From NCBI GenBank assembly GCA_958439775.1, contig CAUBWQ010000019.1:1-10453 (forward strand): a DNA stretch of 10,453 bases, given 5' to 3'. Positions 2,196 through 10,453 of the stretch are shown here, one piece after another. The stretch comes from an uncultured Collinsella sp. GTDB taxonomy: Bacteria; Actinomycetota; Coriobacteriia; Coriobacteriales; Coriobacteriaceae. The translations under genes and the position numbers were made by a program. Below the pieces are notes generated by a model. That model did no database searches and had not been told where the DNA came from. It saw only the letters and a list, made by a program, of their open reading frames with translations. The stretch's first letter is position 1. Each line of letters starts with the position of its first letter.

Positions 2196-3548
2196 TTAGG
2201 CAAGGAGCCACTTCCATGCGGGCATAACGTGTACCACACCGTGCTCGCATGGAATATCGGTCTGTTCATCCATGGTAACGATTGCCGACTCGCCAAGATC
2301 AAACTGGGCCATCGAGGCATCAAGCGCGGCGATTTCGCGCTCGCGCGTTTTCTCACTTGCCATATCCGCACTCACCTGAATCAGGCTATAAGCCCGCATG
2401 AGAAGCGCATCCCCAGCCACAAAGTCCACCTCATGGCTTTTGCTCTTCTCTTTGATTAGCAGGCGGCAGACCGAGCCGGTCCTCACCGCGGGAGTCCTTC
2501 TTCTTAGCGCATTGAACACTGCGGTCTCGAGCCTCTGGCCCTGGTCCAATGCCGATGCGGGAGAGAATGCTCCAAACATCGCAGGGTCGACAGCGTAGAC
2601 CTTAGACGCAGACCGCATGTTATTTGCCAGTGAACGCATGAACTCCGGCACAGAAAATAACAGATAGGCGTCCTCATAATACTCAAGTAAGTCGCTGAGC
2701 GAATTACGACTGACGGGTATCTGTCTGCTCTTGAACTCGTTGTACACTTTGTTCACTGACAGCTCTCGTCCCGAAGATGCCATACACCGCGTCAAGAACA
2801 GCGATGCCAGGCGAGGGTTCTTGACGTCGTAACGTTCAACGACGTCCATGGCGACCGTTCGCGAAGCATATTCCTGTAGCAGCTGAATCGCGTCTGCAGG
2901 CGTCTGCTCAAGTGTCGCGATGAATCCCCCTCGTTCAAGATACCCGATCAGATGATGTCGAAGCAGCGCTGCATCGCTCGGGGAAAAGGTCGCATCTGAC
3001 TCGAGAACGCTCCCCGTCTTATATCGAACGTATTCCGAAAAACTCAACGGAAAAAGCTCTCGCACAAGAGAACGACCCCTGAACTCGCTCTTAAGTTCTG
3101 AGGACAGCATCTTAGAAGAAGATCCCGTCACATAGACGGTCGCTTTCTCCGTATCGACTACACGCCGCAGAAACGCACCCCATTCGGGAATTTCCTGGAT
3201 CTCGTCAAAGAAAATGTAAGCGCCCTCGGTTCGAGCAACAGGATACAGCGCATAGAACGTGTCGAGCACGTCCGCCAGCAGCGATGGCTCATACGGGCGC
3301 AAGCGCTCATCCTCAAAATTGAAGTAAAGCATCCGGTCAAGCTCGACGCCCCGGTTCTGAAGCCGCCACATCTCCTGATACAGGCGATACGTCTTTCCAC
3401 AACGGCGGGCCCCCACAATCACATTTACGATGTTGTCGCGCTTTGGCTCCTGTGGGTTTCCTAGATCAAGGTCTCGCTCAAAGACCTGCGGAACCCCCTG
3501 CTGTTCAAAGTCCTTTATTTTCTGGGCGATCAAGTCGTTGAATGCCAT
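2196..3548 (-). CDS. AAA_14 / DUF4143-type ATPase
   Basis: The protein has 450 residues, normal for this widespread orphan ATPase family. Residues 1-40 form the N-terminal lead-in. The P-loop GARRCGKT is at 46-53, the Walker B strand YIFFDE at 111-116 and a sensor-like TGSSS at 141-145, followed by FRGRSLVRELFPLSFSEY, the hallmark end of the AAA_14 domain. Residues about 262-300 look like a winged helix, and about 338-395 resemble the nuclease-fold DUF4143 tail, with EVDF at 373-376 and IQVS at 390-393 where many relatives have EVK. The usual metal-binding Lys is therefore absent, and nuclease activity is doubtful. The ATG at 3546-3548 follows GGAG at four bases. The gene is isolated, less GC-rich than its neighbours, and has a palindromic promoter, which suggests horizontal acquisition and self-regulation. 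The cellular role of such ATPases is not established. Confidence 0.92.
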   Translation of the reverse strand: MAFNDLIAQKIKDFEQQGVPQVFERDLDLGNPQEPKRDNIVNVIVGARRCGKTYRLYQEMWRLQNRGVELDRMLYFNFEDERLRPYEPSLLADVLDTFYALYPVARTEGAYIFFDEIQEIPEWGAFLRRVVDTEKATVYVTGSSSKMLSSELKSEFRGRSLVRELFPLSFSEYVRYKTGSVLESDATFSPSDAALLRHHLIGYLERGGFIATLEQTPADAIQLLQEYASRTVAMDVVERYDVKNPRLASLFLTRCMASSGRELSVNKVYNEFKSRQIPVSRNSLSDLLEYYEDAYLLFSVPEFMRSLANNMRSASKVYAVDPAMFGAFSPASALDQGQRLETAVFNALRRRTPAVRTGSVCRLLIKEKSKSHEVDFVAGDALLMRAYSLIQVSADMASEKTREREIAALDASMAQFDLGESAIVTMDEQTDIPCEHGVVHVMPAWKWLLA

Positions 3549-4149: not shown

Positions 4150-4179
4150 GTAGATTTTAAGGCATGTCCCAAAATCTAC
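4150..4179. repeat. Inverted repeat overlapping the clpB stop codon
   Basis: GTAGATTTT (4150-4158) and AAAATCTAC (4171-4179) are perfect 9-bp complements around a 12-base loop. The inner arm includes the TAG stop of clpB (4178-4176). It precedes the true terminator and has no T-run of its own. Confidence 0.6.
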
Positions 4180-6791
4180 TCGGCGTCGGGAACCTCGTAG
4201 GTGGCCGCCGGCGTGTTGTCGCACACGACGGTAAAGCCGCCGTCCTTGCCGGCATCGACCGTCACCTGATCGCCCTCGCGCACCGTGCCGTCGATGATAG
4301 CGGCGGCGATGGCATCCACGACCTCGCGCTGAACCAGGCGCTTGAGCGGACGGGCACCGAACACGGGGTCCAGGCCACCCACGGCGAGCATCTGCTTGGC
4401 CGCCGGGGTGATGGCAAGCGTCATGCGCTCCTTGGCCAGGCGTGCGCGAACGTCGGCAAGCTGGATGTCGACAATCTTCTCGATCTGCGCCATGCCGAGC
4501 GGATGGAACACCACGATATCGTCGATACGGTTGAGGAACTCGGGGCGGAAGGTCTGAGCCATGGCGGCGTCGACCTGATGGCGCATCTCCTCCTCGTCCT
4601 TACCGGACAGATCGGCGATGGCCTTGGAGCCCACGTTGGACGTCATGATGATAATCGTGTTCTTGAAGGACACCTGGCGACCCTGGCCATCGGTCAGACG
4701 GCCGTCGTCGAGCACCTGCAGCAGCACGTTGAAGACATCAGGATGAGCCTTCTCCATCTCGTCGAGCAAGATCACGGAGTACGGACGACGGCGCACGGCC
4801 TCAGTGAGCTGGCCGCCCTCGTCGTAACCCACGTATCCTGGGGGCGCACCGATCAGACGCTGGACGCTGAACTTCTCCATGTACTCGGACATGTCGATAC
4901 GCACGAGCGCGCGCTCGTCGTCGAACAGGCACTCGGCAAGTGCCTTGGCGAGCTCGGTCTTGCCCACGCCGGTGGGGCCCAGGAAGAAGAAGCTGCCGAT
5001 GGGCTTGTCCGGATCGGAGAGGCCCGCACGGCTGCGGCGCACAGCCGCGGCGACGGCGGAGACGGCCTCGTCCTGGCCGATGACGCGCTTATGCAGCTCA
5101 CCCTCCAGGCCCTTCAGCTTGTCGAGCTCGCCCTGCATCATCTTGGACACGGGCACGCCGGTCCAGGCACTCACGACATCGGAGGTCACCTGCTCGTTGA
5201 GACCCTCGCCGTCCTTCTGCTTTTGTGCCTCGAGCGCAGCCTCGGAATCCTGAATCTGCTGCTGCAGACCCGGAATCACGGAGTAGCGCAGCTCGGACGC
5301 ACGGCCCAGGTCGCCGTTGCGCGTCGCGCGCTCCTCTTCGCTTCTGGCCTCGTCGAGCTGTCCCTTAAGCTCCTGCACGTGGTCGATGGCGTTCTTCTGG
5401 TTGAGCCAGCCGGCCTTTTGCACGGTGAGCTTTTCTTGGACCTCGGCGATCTCTTGGCGCAGGGCCTCCAGACGCTCCTTGGAGGCGTCGTCGGTCTCCT
5501 TCATGAGCGCCTGCTCCTCGATCTGCAGCTGGGTGAGCTGACGCGTGGTGGCGTCAATCTCGACCGGCATGCTGTCGAGTTCCATGCGCAGGCGGCTTGC
5601 GGCCTCATCGACCAGGTCGATGGCCTTGTCGGGCAGAAAGCGGTCGGCGATATAGCGATCGGAGAGGTCAGCAGCGGCCACGAGCGCGCTATCGGTGATG
5701 TGCACACCGTGGAAGATCTCGTACTTCTCCTTGAGGCCACGCAGGATCGAGATGGTGTCCTCGACGGTAGGCTCGCTCACCATAACGGTCTGGAAACGAC
5801 GGGCGAGCGCCGCGTCCTTCTCGATGTACTTGCGATACTCGTCGAGCGTGGTCGCGCCGATCGCGTGCAAGTCGCCACGGGCAAGCGCCGGCTTGAGGAT
5901 GTTGCCGGCGTCCATGGAGCCCTCGGTGGCACCAGCGCCCACGATGGTGTGGAGCTCATCGATGAACAGGATGACCTTGCCTTCGGACTTCTGTACCTCC
6001 TTGAGCACAGCCTTCAAGCGGTCCTCGAACTCGCCGCGGTACTTAGCGCCGGCGACCAGCGCGCTCATGTCGAGCTCGATAAGGTCGCGGTCGCGCAGGG
6101 TACTCGGCACGTCGCCGGCCACGATACGCTGGGCGATGCCCTCGACGATGGCCGTCTTGCCGACACCCGGCTCGCCGATGAGCACGGGGTTGTTCTTGGT
6201 GCGGCGGGACAGGACCTGAATGGTGCGACGGATCTCGTCGGTACGGCCAATGACCGGGTCGAGCTTGCCGGCGCGGGCAAGGTCGCAGATATTGCGGCCG
6301 TACTGTTCCAGCGCCTCAAACTGGGTCTTGTCCTCGGCGGACGTCACGCGGTCATCGCCGCGCAGCTCCTCGTAGACCTGCTCGATGCGCTCCTTGGTGA
6401 CGCCGGCGTCGCGCAGCACACGGCCCGCCTCGCCCTTGTCCTCGGCAAGCGCCATCAGCAGATGCTCGGTCACCACAAAGCTGTCGCCCATCTTGGTGGC
6501 CTTCTTCTCGGCCTTCTCGATGACGCGAACGAGCTCGTTGGACAGGCCCATCTGCTGGCCCTCGCCCGAAACCTTGGGCGCGCGGTCGATGGCGTCCTGT
6601 GTGGAGCGTGCGAGCTGAGCCGGGTCGGCACCGATGCGCTCGATAATCACGGAGATATTGCGCTCGCCGGCACCGAGCAGGGCAGACAGCAGGTGAATCG
6701 GCTCCACCGCGCCGGCCTGCGCGTCAGCGGCCGTGCTCATGGCGGTCTGCAACGCCTCGCGCGACGTCATTGCTAGCTTATCGATTCTCAT
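4176..6791 (-). CDS. clpB: ATP-dependent chaperone ClpB (Hsp100 disaggregase)
   Basis: ClpB is a hexameric cytoplasmic unfoldase that pulls proteins out of aggregates together with DnaK/DnaJ/GrpE. All its parts are visible in 871 residues. They are a Clp-N domain (about 1-145), a first AAA+ domain with GEPGVGKT at 206-213, Walker B FIDE at 276-279 and pore-loop KYRGEFEDR at 250-258, and a long helical M-domain (about 400-525). The second AAA+ domain follows, with GPTGVGKT at 605-612, ILLDE at 674-678, the GYVG pore loop at 652-655 and [10 protein letters not shown] near the second sensor region. The M-domain separates ClpB from ClpA and ClpC, and no ClpP-binding IGF/IGL loop is evident. The ATG at 6791 follows AGAGAGG at a suitable distance, so it is preferred over the Met at residue 8. 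The gene is monocistronic, with its own leader and terminator. Confidence 0.97.
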
Positions 6792-6905: not shown

Positions 6906-6986
6906 TTTCTGAGTGCTCTCATGACATGGAAAATCACCACAAAGGGGACAGGCGCGCTCACCCGCTGCGGCCTCATCCCCTTACTA

Positions 6987-7041
6987 TCTCAATCTGTAAC
7001 ATCTAGCGACTGTTTATGGCTCCAGATGTTACAAATCAAGA
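6987..7041. repeat. U unit 1 (55-bp hairpin)
   Basis: It begins TCTCAATCTGTAACATCT and its other arm begins AGATGTTACA. The inner 10-bp arms are perfect (6995-7004 with 7024-7033) around a 19-base centre. It is the counterpart of unit 4, exactly 1,954 bp away. Confidence 0.85.
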
Positions 7042-7066
7042 TGAAATGACCAGCGGCGCCCGTTTG

Positions 7067-7121
7067 TCTCAATCTGTAACATCTACTCGGCAAATAGAGC
7101 TCCATCTGTTACAAATCGAGA
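7067..7121. repeat. U unit 2 (55-bp hairpin)
   Basis: It begins like unit 1 but has a different centre, ACTCGGCAAATAGAG, which unit 5 shares. The right arm is CTGTTACAAATCGAGA. It starts 80 bp after unit 1. Confidence 0.85.
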
Positions 7122-7147
7122 CGAACAGAAGACACCCGGATCAAAAA

Positions 7148-7202
7148 TCTAAATCTGTAACACCAAGCCCACTTTTAGCGGCCAAGATGTTACAAGTCGA
7201 GA
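7148..7202. repeat. U unit 3 (55-bp hairpin)
   Basis: It is more diverged: left arm TCTAAATCTGTAACA, right arm GATGTTACAAGTCGAGA. Length is again 55 bp and it starts 81 bp after unit 2. It has no counterpart in copy 2. Confidence 0.8.
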
Positions 7203-7212
7203 CAGACCGAAA

Positions 7213-7247
7213 ACCACCACAAAGAGGACAGGCACCTTTGTGGTGGT
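7213..7247 (-). terminator. H hairpin serving as terminator
   Basis: Perfect 12-bp arms ACCACCACAAAG (7213-7224) and CTTTGTGGTGGT (7236-7247) flank an 11-base loop. On the minus strand the stem begins eight bases past the stop of the gene ending at 7256, and the run TTTTCGG follows, as expected for an intrinsic terminator. It is also the right-hand H of composite copy 1. Confidence 0.7.
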
Positions 7248-7255
7248 CGCGGTCT

Positions 7256-7942
7256 CTACTCCTTCGCCGAACCCGTACTTCCCGATTCGACGGTCCAGGG
7301 CATCTCATCCTCGAACAGCCATGTACGGGCAGACCCACTATCGCGTGCAGTCTGCGGGTCGGGCAAGCAGGTCTGTTCATAGGCATCCTGAATGCACTGA
7401 CCCATAAAATCGTTGAGCTCGGTCTGGTTGCCCTCCATGACATAGGCGACATCGCCGTCCAAGATGTAGATACCCGGCCCCTCATTGCCCTCGTAGCCAG
7501 GATCGTACGAAACATCACATAACTTAGTGCCATTCGCGGTGTCCAACTCGATGGACGAGCGGCATCCGCCAACCATGTCGTTCGCTTTTGCCCGATAGGA
7601 TGCATATCCATACCAGCGCTTAAAGGTTTTGCCCTTGAGCAGCTCGAACGCCCTGTCGATCAGACTAGAATCCGTGGTATAGCGCATAGCCCCAAGCTGA
7701 ATACGCGGATAATTGCTAATACCCAGCACAGCCGGCTGCTCATCAAAATCAACGGTAATGGTCTCGGGCTTGTCGTCGCCGGTCAGAAGTTCGACAGATT
7801 GAGTCACAGGCTTGACCACCGGCTCCGTCACCGCAGCAGGTAGAAATGCCATACCGACAGCGCCCGCGCCAACCACAGCGATCGCAAGCGCCAAGACAAT
7901 CAATCCAATACGGGCAGAACGGCTCACGGCAAAACACCCCAC
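7256..7942 (-). CDS. Single-anchor exported protein, function unknown
   Basis: From the GTG at 7942 the product has 228 residues. A short basic head is followed by one hydrophobic segment (about residues 12-38), then an exported domain of about 190 residues with four Cys (127, 142, 183, 192) that could form disulfides. The C-terminal half contains YDPGYEGNEGPGIYILDG. There is no lipobox at a suitable place and no enzyme motif, and I do not recognise the family. The start is chosen because GAAGG lies eight bases upstream. The longer GTG start at 7966 falls at or before the expected transcription start of the promoter at 7969-7997; a GTG at 7927 is also possible. It is divergent from the gene at 8162, and a repeat hairpin is its likely terminator. 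Confidence 0.75.
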   Translation of the reverse strand: MGCFAVSRSARIGLIVLALAIAVVGAGAVGMAFLPAAVTEPVVKPVTQSVELLTGDDKPETITVDFDEQPAVLGISNYPRIQLGAMRYTTDSSLIDRAFELLKGKTFKRWYGYASYRAKANDMVGGCRSSIELDTANGTKLCDVSYDPGYEGNEGPGIYILDGDVAYVMEGNQTELNDFMGQCIQDAYEQTCLPDPQTARDSGSARTWLFEDEMPWTVESGSTGSAKE

Positions 7943-7968
7943 AATGCAAACCTTCGCCACCTGCACTA

Positions 7969-7997
7969 ATGATACCGCCAGCTAACACTATTACCAA
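7969..7997 (-). promoter_or_regulatory. Sigma-70-type promoter of the gene ending at 7256
   Basis: On the minus strand TTGGTA (7997-7992) and TATCAT (7974-7969) are separated by exactly 17 bp. They match the consensus at 4 of 6 and 5 of 6 bases. Transcription should begin near 7962, which rules out a start codon at 7966 and supports 7942. Confidence 0.6.
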
Positions 7998-8016
7998 AAG
8001 AAGCCGCGCGCTCCTC

Positions 8017-8051
8017 ACCACCACAAAGGGGACAGGCACCTTTGTGATGGT
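8017..8051. repeat. H hairpin 3, in the divergent promoter region
   Basis: Arms ACCACCACAAAGG (8017-8029) and CCTTTGTGATGGT (8039-8051) pair with one mismatch, and TTTCGAC follows. It lies between two divergent genes, so it is not positioned as a terminator for either. The 22-base linker and the TCTC that follow match the layout after the H at 8884. Confidence 0.8.
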
Positions 8052-8073
8052 TTTCGACGCTAACGGTCGACCA

Positions 8074-8088
8074 TCTCACGCCATGAGA
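8074..8088. repeat. Possible collapsed U unit
   Basis: TCTC (8074-8077) stands 22 bases after H3, the same distance as unit 4 stands after its H. Instead of a 55-bp unit there is a 7-base centre and then GAGA (8085-8088). With flanking bases, ATCTCA and TGAGAT form a 6-bp stem. It looks like a unit with its interior lost. Confidence 0.4.
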
Positions 8089-8161
8089 TTAAACTTGAAT
8101 TGTTCTCTGAACATATCCATTTCTGCCTATCCTCAACAGCTCTTTGTCTCGAGGAGCGCAT

Positions 8162-8830
8162 ATGAAGCCGTCTCATTCCACCGGTCGCAACGTCATCGCC
8201 ATTCTCGCCATACCCATCGTGATGCTCTTCCTTATCGTCATCACGCCCTTTTCTTTTGGCATCGCCACGCCCTTCGACCTTTGCGGGATGAACGACGCCG
8301 GCTCGCGTGCCACCTCGCTTTCCTTTATCTGTCGCGGCGTGTTTTACGAAGATGGAATTCCCACCGGAATTTGGCGGTCAAAGTTGCCATTGCTCGGTCA
8401 GATCGACGGATGCTCCCCCTATTTCTGCCTTGGACCTCAGGCGCTAAACTATCTAATCGACGACCAGCCACTCGACTCCATCACCCTCGCCTACGACTAC
8501 GCACCAAACACCGATGAGCGCCACATGAACCAAGTCCTCGACAAGCTGCTTGGACAGTGCGGGCTCACCGCGGAAGCCGGTCGAACCATCTATAGCAACC
8601 AGAAATTAAAGCGAACAGAACTCCGCCGTGTCGGAAAAATCAAAGGGCGAAACGGGGCCGCCTACTGGGATGCCTGGGCAACACGCGACAAGGGCGAATT
8701 CGGACACAGCACCTATATGGTCACTGTCTACACCAAAGACGGAATTAAGGACAATGTTGACGATTTCGCGTCATCCAAACTCGGCATCCCCAAAACAACC
8801 AAACCCGCCAGCCCGGATGAAATCCTGTAG
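8162..8830 (+). CDS. Single-anchor exported protein, function unknown
   Basis: The product has 222 residues. A short head with one Arg and one Lys is followed by a hydrophobic segment (about residues 10-35), then an exported domain with five Cys (41, 57, 84, 89, 133), an ITLAYDYAPNTDERHMNQVLDKLLGQC helix-rich centre written here only in outline, and an aromatic-rich C-terminal part. No enzyme or binding motif is recognised. The ATG at 8162 follows GAGGAG (8151-8156) at five bases; an upstream in-frame TTG at 8144 lacks such a site. It is divergent from the gene ending at 7256. The two share topology and size but no clear sequence similarity by eye. Confidence 0.75.
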   Translation: MKPSHSTGRNVIAILAIPIVMLFLIVITPFSFGIATPFDLCGMNDAGSRATSLSFICRGVFYEDGIPTGIWRSKLPLLGQIDGCSPYFCLGPQALNYLIDDQPLDSITLAYDYAPNTDERHMNQVLDKLLGQCGLTAEAGRTIYSNQKLKRTELRRVGKIKGRNGAAYWDAWATRDKGEFGHSTYMVTVYTKDGIKDNVDDFASSKLGIPKTTKPASPDEIL

Positions 8831-8883
8831 GGACGCTCATTAGAATGTCGTTCAACGAGCACGGCAACATCGAGTTCGCCCCC

Positions 8884-8918
8884 ACCACCACGAAAGGGAC
8901 AGGCCCCTTTGTGGCGGT
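8884..8918 (+). terminator. H hairpin 4, likely terminator of the gene ending at 8830
   Basis: The stem CCACGAAAGGG with CCCTTTGTGG, extended by further CC/GG pairs, encloses ACAGGC and is followed by TTTTCG. It begins 54 bases past the stop codon. It is also the left H of composite copy 2. Confidence 0.6.
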
Positions 8919-8940
8919 TTTCGACTCTGGCGCTCAACTG

Positions 8941-8995
8941 TCTCGATCTGTAACATCTAGCTGCCGTTTTGGACCTCAGATGTTACAGATCGAGA
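8941..8995. repeat. U unit 4 (55-bp hairpin)
   Basis: Left arm TCTCGATCTGTAACATCT and right arm AGATGTTACAGATCGAGA are perfect 18-bp complements around a 19-base centre. This is the best-preserved unit. Confidence 0.88.
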
Positions 8996-9020
8996 CGAAA
9001 TGTTCAGCAGTTCCCGTTTA

Positions 9021-9075
9021 TCTAAATCTGTAACAACTACTCGGCAAATAGAGGTCTACCTGTTACAGAACGAGA
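9021..9075. repeat. U unit 5 (55-bp hairpin)
   Basis: It begins TCTAAATCTGTAACA, contains the ACTCGGCAAATAGAG centre of unit 2, and ends CTGTTACAGAACGAGA. It starts 80 bp after unit 4. Confidence 0.85.
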
Positions 9076-9085
9076 CAAACCGTGA

Positions 9086-9120
9086 ACCGCCACAAAGGTG
9101 CCTGTCCCCTTTGTGGTGGT
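9086..9120. repeat. H hairpin 5 (inverted orientation)
   Basis: ACCGCCACAAAGG (9086-9098) pairs with CCTTTGTGGTGGT (9108-9120) with one G-T type mismatch. The loop reads TGCCTGTCC, the complement of the loop in the other H copies, so this one is inverted. It begins 10 bases after unit 5, the same gap as between unit 3 and its H. Confidence 0.85.
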
Positions 9121-9127
9121 TTTCGAC

Positions 9128-9159
9128 AAAAAGAAGCCGCCCCAATAAAAAGAGGCGGC
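9128..9159 (-). terminator. Rho-independent terminator of the hydratase gene
   Basis: GCCGCC (9136-9141) and GGCGGC (9154-9159) form a 6-bp GC stem. On the minus strand TTCTTTTT follows at 9135-9128. It lies about 150 bases past the hydratase stop, beyond the large nested repeat. Confidence 0.75.
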
Positions 9160-9305: not shown

Positions 9306-10453
9306 TTACTCGGCAGCGGCCTTGAACTTGTTGTAGTTGATCAGGCAGCCGGCCTTGACGATGGCGCGCTCCTCTGCCGTCATATCGGCAATGTAAAGCT
9401 CAATCTGCTCGACCGCACCATCGGCACGAACCACGTAAGCGGCGATGTCCTTCAGGTCGCCGTCGAGCGCGGCGCGGATACCCGGCACAAAGACGTAGTC
9501 GCCTACCTCAAAGCTGGGCTCGGCCTCCATCTGGAAGGGCACCATGCCCCAGTTCATCACGTTGGAGCGATAGCGCTTGGTGGCGTACTCGTGGACGATG
9601 TTGGCCAGGCCGCCAATTACGCGCTGGCAGCTCGCGGCCTGCTCGCGGGCGGAACCGTCACCGGGCTTCTTAGCGTAGAGCATGGAGCCGTACTCGGTCG
9701 CCTTGGCATCTGCCGCGACACCCGCGCCGGCCAACGCCTCAAAAACACCAGCAAGCTCGGCATCGAGCGCCGCCAGGTCGCCCGCGGCCTCGCCGGCCAC
9801 GCGGCGCTTCTCAACGGCGTCGACTTCCTTGGAGCGGCCCACGTAGGCCGGGTCACGGCGGCTGAGCGTAAACTCGGCCAGGCCCAGCGGGTTGGAGCGG
9901 AAGGAGCTCGTCTCACCCGAGGGAATGAGCTCGTCGGTCGTGGTGACCGGGTCCATGATCTTGGAGCACACCTTGAGCAGGATGTCGTCGCCGAGGGGCT
10001 CCATCGCGGGCCACGGCTTGATGTTGGGGCCCTCGACCAGCTCGTCGGCCGGCTCAGCCTTGCCAAAGCCCCAGTACACGCGCTTCTTGTACGGCGCGTC
10101 GTCAAAGGCGTACTCGCAGCCCTCGTCCCAAGTCTCCTCGGGCAGGTCGGTCGCCGGCGTCAGGATGCCGCCGTTGGCCGCCGTCGCCGCAATGGAGCGG
10201 GCGTCCATCAGGGCCACGGCGCTCAGCTGGCCGTTGCCCGGTTTGGAACCCTCGCGATTGGGGAAGTTGCGCGTTGTGTGGCGGATGGACAGACCGTTGT
10301 TGGCAGGCGTGTCGCCGGCACCGAAGCACGGACCGCAGAACGCCGTGCGCACGATCGCGCCAGCCTCCATGAGGTCGTAGATATAGCCGCGGCGTGTAAG
10401 CTCGAGCGCCACAGGCTGGCTCGTGGGATAGACCGACAGCGAAAACTCGCAGC
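9306..10453 (-). CDS. Aconitase-superfamily hydratase, C-terminal part (5' end outside window)
   Basis: The frame is open to the window edge, giving about 381 residues, roughly half of a protein of the YbhJ-like putative hydratase type (about 750 residues in E. coli). The aconitase features are clear. CGPCFGAGD carries two of the three Cys ligands of the [4Fe-4S] cluster. [16 protein letters not shown] with [14 protein letters not shown] matches the conserved core, [11 protein letters not shown] begins the swivel domain, and [13 protein letters not shown] matches its end. Aconitase-fold enzymes move water across a hydroxy-acid, but the substrate of this branch is not settled, so a specific reaction is not claimed. 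The third Cys ligand must lie upstream of the window. The internal GTG at 10412 is not a start, because the matching sequence continues upstream. Transcription ends at a terminator at 9128-9159. Confidence 0.92.

What the first reader, a model, noticed from the sequence alone, without database searches (positions are those of the whole stretch)
6933..7247. Array of 55-bp hairpin units with an 80-bp period, bounded by 35-bp hairpins
Three U units (6987, 7067, 7148) are each exactly 55 bp, start with TCTC, end near GAGA and carry TGTAACA arms, yet their 19-base centres differ. Spacers are 25-26 bases. Conserved length and arms with variable centres suggest selection on structure. Possible roles are RNA hairpins, spaced binding sites or a REP/BIME-like mobile mosaic. 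No feature type I know describes it exactly.
Basis: partly seen in the sequence, partly recalled or inferred. Interest (0 to 1): 0.7.

Follow-up and report, generated by a model that had tools for sequence, protein, structure and literature searches.

The report
Gut-bacterium arrays of paired DNA sites
Collinsella aerofaciens-type gut bacteria carry dozens of copies of a strictly spaced, paired DNA sequence in small arrays between genes, which look more like docking platforms for an unidentified DNA-binding protein than like RNA hairpins.

Summary
Three 55-bp units (6987, 7067, 7148) exist at a period of 80/81 bp, and a second array (8941-9075) was missed. The right 35-bp hairpin is complete; the left one is only a half copy. 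The units belong to a dispersed family, TCTCRATCTGTAACA-N25-TGTTACAGATYGAGA: 22 of 43 genus genomes hold 18-47 copies each, 4 more hold one or two, and 0 of 259 sampled class genomes outside the genus match. It marks the C. aerofaciens clade. Of 313 adjacent pairs under 130 bp, all are 78-81 bp apart, so an array is a run of 15-bp boxes of alternating direction every ~40 bp. The two halves vary independently (pairing equals shuffled controls), so selection acts on DNA half-sites and spacing, not on an RNA hairpin. Arrays keep positions across species, but units are copied between loci, centres are sometimes replaced, and one array has come or gone repeatedly, leaving a single border hairpin. 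Best reading: a phased binding platform for an unidentified protein, with BIME-like evolution. The border hairpins are a separate repeat resembling GGGGWSAS inverted repeats of tyrosine-transposase elements. No binding protein was found; function is untested.

The parts
6987..7041 (.). U unit 1 of array 1; boxes 6987-7001 and 7027-7041, core 6995-7033
7067..7121 (.). U unit 2 of array 1 (80 bp from unit 1)
7148..7202 (.). U unit 3 of array 1 (81 bp from unit 2)
8941..8995 (.).
9021..9075 (.). U unit 2 of array 2 (80 bp from unit 1)
7213..7247 (.). complete 35-bp H hairpin at the right edge of array 1
6933..6953 (+). half H copy at the left edge of array 1; second arm missing, does not fold
8884..8918 (+). 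H hairpin at the left edge of array 2
   Evidence: read from the sequence
9086..9120 (-). H hairpin at the right edge of array 2, opposite direction
   Evidence: read from the sequence; single H at empty sites
8017..8051 (+). solitary H hairpin between the two arrays
   Evidence: read from the sequence
9136..9159 (-). terminator-like stem-loop of the aconitase-like gene; array 2 lies beyond it
   Evidence: pattern scan

Best explanation
The 55-bp unit is a double-stranded DNA site made of two inverted 15-bp boxes (TCTCRATCTGTAACA) 40 bp apart around a central A-tract. Units repeat every 80-81 bp, so an array is a row of boxes every ~40 bp in alternating direction. SHOWN by sequence: the boxes are nearly invariant, centre and spacer letters are largely free, distances are fixed within about 1 bp, the halves vary independently, and arrays lie between genes and are found at the same loci in many species of the clade. 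INFERRED: an unidentified sequence-specific protein, probably a dimer, binds the two boxes of a unit and bends the DNA at the A-tract; neighbouring complexes touch in a fixed helical phase and form an ordered nucleoprotein block at gene borders. Its most likely role is structural (supercoiling, nucleoid anchoring or insulation), comparable to gyrase- or IHF-bound BIMEs. Arrays change and probably arise by recombinational copying of units between loci.
For: Spacing: 313 of 313 adjacent core pairs under 130 bp are 78-81 bp apart (183 at 80, 121 at 81, 8 at 79, 1 at 78; loci overlap and are not all independent), although spacer letters carry little information. Spacer length differs in 38 of 261 orthologous comparisons, never leaving that range, while distances from arrays to flanking stop codons vary by up to tens of bases at some loci (at others they do not vary). 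In genome G003, 85 of 89 boxes with at most one mismatch have a partner 40 bp away (my reading of its list). Variable box positions are independent: at +/-23, GC 32, GT 31, AC 30, AT 21, other 3 of 117; paired cells 92.5% against 92.6% in shuffles. The A-tract direction of neighbouring units goes with 80 or 81 bp: +- 12 of 19 at 81, -+ 3 of 15 at 81, Fisher p=0.017, post hoc, among 103 non-redundant pairs (first seen). Between orthologous units boxes differ at 3.8% of sites, centres 9.3%, spacers 9.7% (152 array comparisons; comparisons with 8 or more centre differences in any unit were dropped, and boxes were used for detection, so this leans in favour). 188 arrays fall into 25 groups by flanking sequence.
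Against: No binding protein was identified, and none was searched for systematically. At the aconitase locus the array is absent, with a single H left, in 7 of 21 genomes, and two genomes with nearly identical aconitase genes differ in it, so a single array is dispensable. Units are copied between loci, which a selfish repeat would also do. Preference for convergent gene pairs is weak: 19 of 53 contexts against 23 of 101 background spaces (Fisher p=0.09; background). Nearness to dnaA in G003 is suggestive at most (mean distance 0.35 of the half genome, one-sided p=0.027, but KS p=0.18; two largest gaps p=0.058, largest p=0.24).
Confidence: 0.5

Rival explanations
1. A selfish or passively spread BIME/MITE-like repeat: units are copied by a transposase or by recombination, and the constancy of arms and period reflects copying and conversion, not a cellular function.
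For: Spacers are shared between flank groups (160 of 37,520 inter-group pairs against 1 for one shuffle of each; 145 of the 160 are groups 3/4 and 4/12, and pair 5/22 looks like one locus split) and so are centres (236 of 65,573 against 11 in a column-permuted control). Empty sites bear a single H. Array presence at the aconitase locus needs 4 changes on the best tree, 2 forced by well-supported branches. Arrays hold 1 to 8 units. H cores lie within 150 bp of 57 of 175 arrays.
Against: Spacer and centre letters have diverged widely while boxes and lengths have not, so copying alone does not explain the constancy. Of five PF01797 frames in G001 none is flanked by boxes on both sides; other transposase families and genomes were not searched. 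Many arrays stay at the same loci across species.
Confidence: 0.33
2. RNA hairpins in transcripts (stabilisers, processing or sRNA units) with selection on RNA structure.
For: Single units fold better than shuffles as RNA (z -1.7 to -7.7 for the five window units).
Against: No covariation beyond shuffles; AC and GT combinations as common as Watson-Crick pairs at variable arm positions; no Rfam family at gathering score in the window or six further loci; array 2 lies beyond a terminator-like stem-loop. Transcription was not measured.
Confidence: 0.06
3. Recombination cassettes: boxes are recombinase sites and the 25-bp centre (or the genes between arrays) is exchanged or flipped, as in invertons or integrons.
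For: Centres differ at 12 or more of 25 sites in 42 of 542 orthologous unit comparisons, and one exact centre inversion is seen (L074 against L125 and L190); gene order around arrays 1 and 2 differs in some relatives.
Against: Flips are 2 of 542 comparisons and one event; replacements concentrate (18 of 42 in group 4), and one replacing centre resembles a unit of group 3 (my reading), as gene conversion would give. The box does not fit attC R boxes RYYYAAC/GTTRRRY (consensus recalled). Recombinase genes were not searched for.
Confidence: 0.08

Closest known systems
REP/BIME elements (GTAG- and CGTC-tagged palindromes; PMC3733652: abstract, section 16 and search passages read)
   Same: short palindromic extragenic repeats, many copies, opposite directions close together, dispersed and turning over; proposed roles include gyrase binding
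   Different: 55-bp unit of two 15-bp boxes with a largely free 25-bp centre, no GTAG/CGTC tag, fixed 80-81 bp period, no REP-type transposase gene flanked by it in G001
TIRs of tyrosine-transposase elements with motif GGGGWSAS (PMC3733652 section 16)
   Same: the H hairpin contains GGGGACAG, fits the motif, is self-complementary and dispersed
   Different: this concerns H only, not the U unit; the one non-IS200-like Y1 frame in G001 is not flanked by H
Phased centromere-like or operator arrays (sopC, iterons; recalled, not searched)
   Same: tandem protein sites with constant spacing
   Different: those sit at one or a few loci beside the gene of their binding protein; U arrays are at about 20 loci around the chromosome and no such gene was identified
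Gyrase- or IHF-bound BIMEs of E. coli (gyrase link read in a passage of PMC3733652; IHF recalled)
   Same: cluster of extragenic inverted motifs bound by an architectural protein or topoisomerase
   Different: sequence unrelated; binding here untested

Membership tests
GTAG/CGTC REP | 20-40 bp palindrome | tested here: not met
   55-bp unit with a 25-base centre that does not pair beyond chance
GTAG/CGTC REP | unpaired GTAG or CGTC tag at one end | tested here: not met
   unit ends are TCTC and GAGA in the profile of 345 distinct cores
GTAG/CGTC REP | many extragenic copies | tested here: met
   34 exact cores in G001; 18-47 in 22 genus genomes; 53 distinct intergenic contexts
GTAG REP | tyrosine transposase gene flanked by the repeat | tested here: not met
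   one genome only: five PF01797 matches in G001; the 348-aa frame has no box in its 13-kb locus; of four identical 167-aa frames three have no box in their 3.4-kb loci and one has a single box on one side
BIME | mosaic of palindromic units in alternating direction with other motifs | tested here: inconclusive
   boxes alternate and H lies near 57 of 175 arrays, but the unit is not a REP
GGGGWSAS TIR (H hairpin only) | motif GGGGWSAS in a self-complementary repeat | tested here: met
   GGGGACAG in H; motif
GGGGWSAS TIR (H hairpin only) | flanks a tyrosine-transposase gene | tested here: inconclusive
   no H beside the 348-aa frame in G001 (only a 5-mismatch chance-like hit); other genomes not searched
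Structured RNA family | compensatory changes in the stem | tested here: not met
Integron attC | R boxes RYYYAAC / GTTRRRY (recalled) | tested here: not met
   box reads CTGTAAC / GTTACAG; integrase not searched
Phased protein-binding array | a protein that binds the boxes | not testable with these tools
   no candidate identified; needs pull-down or ChIP

The most novel reading that the evidence does not exclude
A new class of chromosome-organising element: phased arrays of paired 15-bp sites at about 20 intergenic loci, read by a dedicated, still unknown architectural protein of the C. aerofaciens clade that builds regular nucleoprotein blocks on this gut bacterium's chromosome.
Probability: 0.25. 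Interest if true: 0.8.

Novelty: new variant of a known kind. Interest (0 to 1): 0.57.

Why it matters
C. aerofaciens is a common human gut bacterium (recalled). If the arrays are platforms for an architectural protein, they would give a direct handle on nucleoid organisation in Coriobacteriia, where I know of no such sites (recalled), and a natural series of 79-81 bp spacing variants for testing phase rules. If they are a selfish repeat, they show how arrays with strict spacing can be copied and conserved. The text searches made (listings and openings of abstracts only; one search listed 10 of 314 papers) showed no title describing them; a subscription paper, or one with other wording, would be missed.

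Tried and rejected
RNA hairpin: not supported. Known RNA family: none at gathering score; one sub-threshold microRNA match (22 bits, gathering 80) judged chance.

DUF559-like gene between two arrays as the partner protein (lead): a close relative (84% identity or more) is in 19 of 43 genus genomes, all unit-rich, in one of them in two pieces with internal stops; it is absent from three unit-rich genomes (G002, G005, G006), and distant paralogues also occur in genomes without units. Pfam gives only a DUF559 match below its cut-off and NCBIfam none. Rejected as an obligate partner.

Solitary boxes as regulator sites: in G003 two boxes lack a recognisable partner (1094248, whose second half is degenerate, and 1419320, not examined further) and two are halves of one unit split by an insertion. 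The genes around them were not annotated.

Phage origin: two stretches in the viral collection match. One (L238) shares flanking sequence with a chromosomal array locus; the other (L239) lacks the outer boxes and looks like chance. Active inversion of centres: one event only. Strong preference for convergent genes: an early redundant count (47 of 103) and a hand count of loci (10 of 21, p=0.011) shrank to 19 of 53 when contexts were made distinct by script (one-sided binomial p=0.021, Fisher p=0.09); the 53 still include variants of one locus. Tandem spaces are under-represented (17 of 53 against 60 of 101, Fisher p=0.002, same caveat). Origin clustering: see evidence against.

Full report
WHAT IS THERE. 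Array 1 has three 55-bp units at 6987, 7067 and 7148. All five cores are exact TGTAACA-N25-TGTTACA; shuffles expect 0.01. The right border of array 1 is a complete 35-bp hairpin; the left border is a half copy that does not fold. Array 1 lies between a gene without Pfam match (7256-7966, minus) and a clpB-like gene (4176-6791, minus). Array 2 lies between another gene without Pfam match (8144-8830, plus) and an aconitase-like gene (9306-10412, minus), beyond a terminator-like stem-loop of the latter.

THE FAMILY. The window's own assembly is not held. The nearest genome G001 (46% shared words) has 34 exact cores with a gap of 18-32 bases allowed; 33 have a gap of 25, one of 24. With 18 fixed bases, 23 of 43 genus genomes match: 22 with 18-47 copies and one with a single copy. 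In a class-wide draw with one mismatch allowed, 21 of 296 genomes match, all among the 37 genus members drawn; 0 of 259 others. A sequence-only profile adds three genus genomes with one or two places and finds none in the 22 other genomes of the family. Unit-rich genomes share 96% or more aconitase identity with the window where the gene was found (21 of 22); the others with a match have 75% or less. So the family marks one clade, with stray copies in four genus genomes outside it.

GEOMETRY. From 208 sequences (window and fetched loci, overlapping and partly redundant; cores sought with a fixed gap of 25 and up to 3 mismatches), 421 distinct 89-mers with 345 distinct cores give the profile TCTCRATCTGTAACA-N25-TGTTACAGATYGAGA. 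With the gap left free at 20-30 and exact arms, 366 of 370 distinct cores have 25. Adjacent cores under 130 bp: 78 (1), 79 (8), 80 (183), 81 (121), no others. With 25 bases inside a unit and 25-26 as a rule between units, boxes stand every ~40 bp in alternating direction. Inside the centre an A-tract at the dyad and TA steps 9-10 bp away recur (110 of 117 units could be oriented by the A-tract). The A-tract direction of neighbours correlates with 80 or 81 bp, a post hoc result.

DNA, NOT RNA. On 117 units with at least 7 centre differences, Watson-Crick pairing at variable symmetric positions is at chance, and at several central positions below it (position -25 alone has p=0.024 among 44). On a 50-unit alignment (50 of the 70 references printed) paired cells are 92.5% against 92.6% shuffled. 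Half-sites therefore vary independently, as expected for a protein that reads each half. Against this, the units do fold as single RNAs, which their inverted boxes make unavoidable.

EVOLUTION. 188 arrays fall into 25 flank groups, some merged or split by the method, with orthologous positions across species. Boxes change less than centres and spacers (3.8, 9.3, 9.7%), with detection bias. Spacers and centres are shared between groups far above controls. Orthologous centres: 476 of 542 comparisons similar, 42 replaced, 2 inverted (one event), the remaining 22 between the cut-offs. At the aconitase locus of 21 relatives: 5 have units within 450 bp of the stop codon, 7 at 1.0-1.4 kb in rearranged or interrupted surroundings, 8 none within 1.5 kb, 1 contig end. 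Seven of the 8 show a single H at the junction (6 in the alignment, one in a sequence printed there), as recombination between the two bordering H copies would leave; the eighth has other sequence. The aconitase tree is poorly resolved (12 of 19 inner branches open): it needs 4 changes of the label, 2 forced by well-supported branches, and does not say gain or loss; G001 (filled) and G034 (empty) are nearly identical in the gene. Arrays are thus durable as a set but dispensable singly.

CONTEXT. By distinct gene pairs: 19 convergent, 17 tandem, 17 divergent of 53; background 23, 60, 18 of 101 spaces of 100-1000 bp in 330 kb of G003. The gene caller is a simple codon model and the 53 include variants of one locus. 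Tandem spaces are under-used (p=0.002); convergent ones only weakly preferred (p=0.09). In G003 dnaA is at 1.75 Mb; 14 array clusters lie on average at 0.35 of the half genome from it (one-sided p=0.027, KS p=0.18). H cores lie within 150 bp of 57 of 175 arrays, against 7 hits in 330 kb of G003.

MECHANISM. Best reading: phased binding platform for an unidentified protein, probably architectural (0.5). Main rival: selfish or passively copied BIME-like repeat (0.33). The two are compatible: a mobile repeat may be kept because it is bound. Steps shown: sequence, spacing, distribution, turnover. Steps inferred: protein, bending, contacts, role.

KNOWN KINDS. U units fail the size and tag features of REPs, and in the one genome tested the transposase feature (definitions from PMC3733652). 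The H hairpin fits the GGGGWSAS motif of tyrosine-transposase TIRs described there, but no transposase flanked by it was found in G001. That paper does not mention Collinsella, Coriobacter, Eggerthella or Slackia in its main text. The listings showed no title describing these arrays.

Noticed in passing
L242 (G003 1827.5-1831.5 kb): An insertion of about 1.3 kb with inverted ends splits one U unit, with an apparent 8-9 bp target duplication inside the centre (read by eye); REPs are known IS targets (PMC1525189, abstract read).
   Followed up: partly
L022:3201 / L018:1249 (G001): One of four identical IS200-like frames lies beside a solitary box; G003 has a degenerate unit at 1094248 with similar neighbouring letters.
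   Followed up: no
L127:1932-2999: Gene with a weak DUF559 match lies between two U arrays in seven fetched loci (L021, L117, L127, L149, L177, L187, L259); locus L178 has one two-unit array and no such gene between the same neighbours.
   Followed up: yes
L280, L281 (G038, G016): Two genus genomes otherwise without units carry one U unit, preceded by an H-like hairpin, beside the same two genes (they look like a TetR regulator and an oleate hydratase, labels from memory); in G038 a clpB-like frame follows, as in the window. Possible transfer or relic.
   Followed up: no
L282 (G029): Two truncated, degenerate U units in a genome without other matches.
   Followed up: no
window 6933-9120: H hairpins with GGGGACAG are a separate dispersed repeat; 28 matches in G001 with up to 2 mismatches, control 1.
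   Followed up: partly
L238: A contig of the viral collection carries, near one end of the stretch fetched, chromosomal sequence with a U array, so an array locus adjoins what was called a virus.
   Followed up: no
window 7256-7966 and 8144-8830: Two genes without Pfam match lie between the two arrays; their arrangement relative to aconitase and the arrays differs in relatives.
   Followed up: partly
window 2196-3548: AAA_14/DUF4143 ATPase gene.
   Followed up: no
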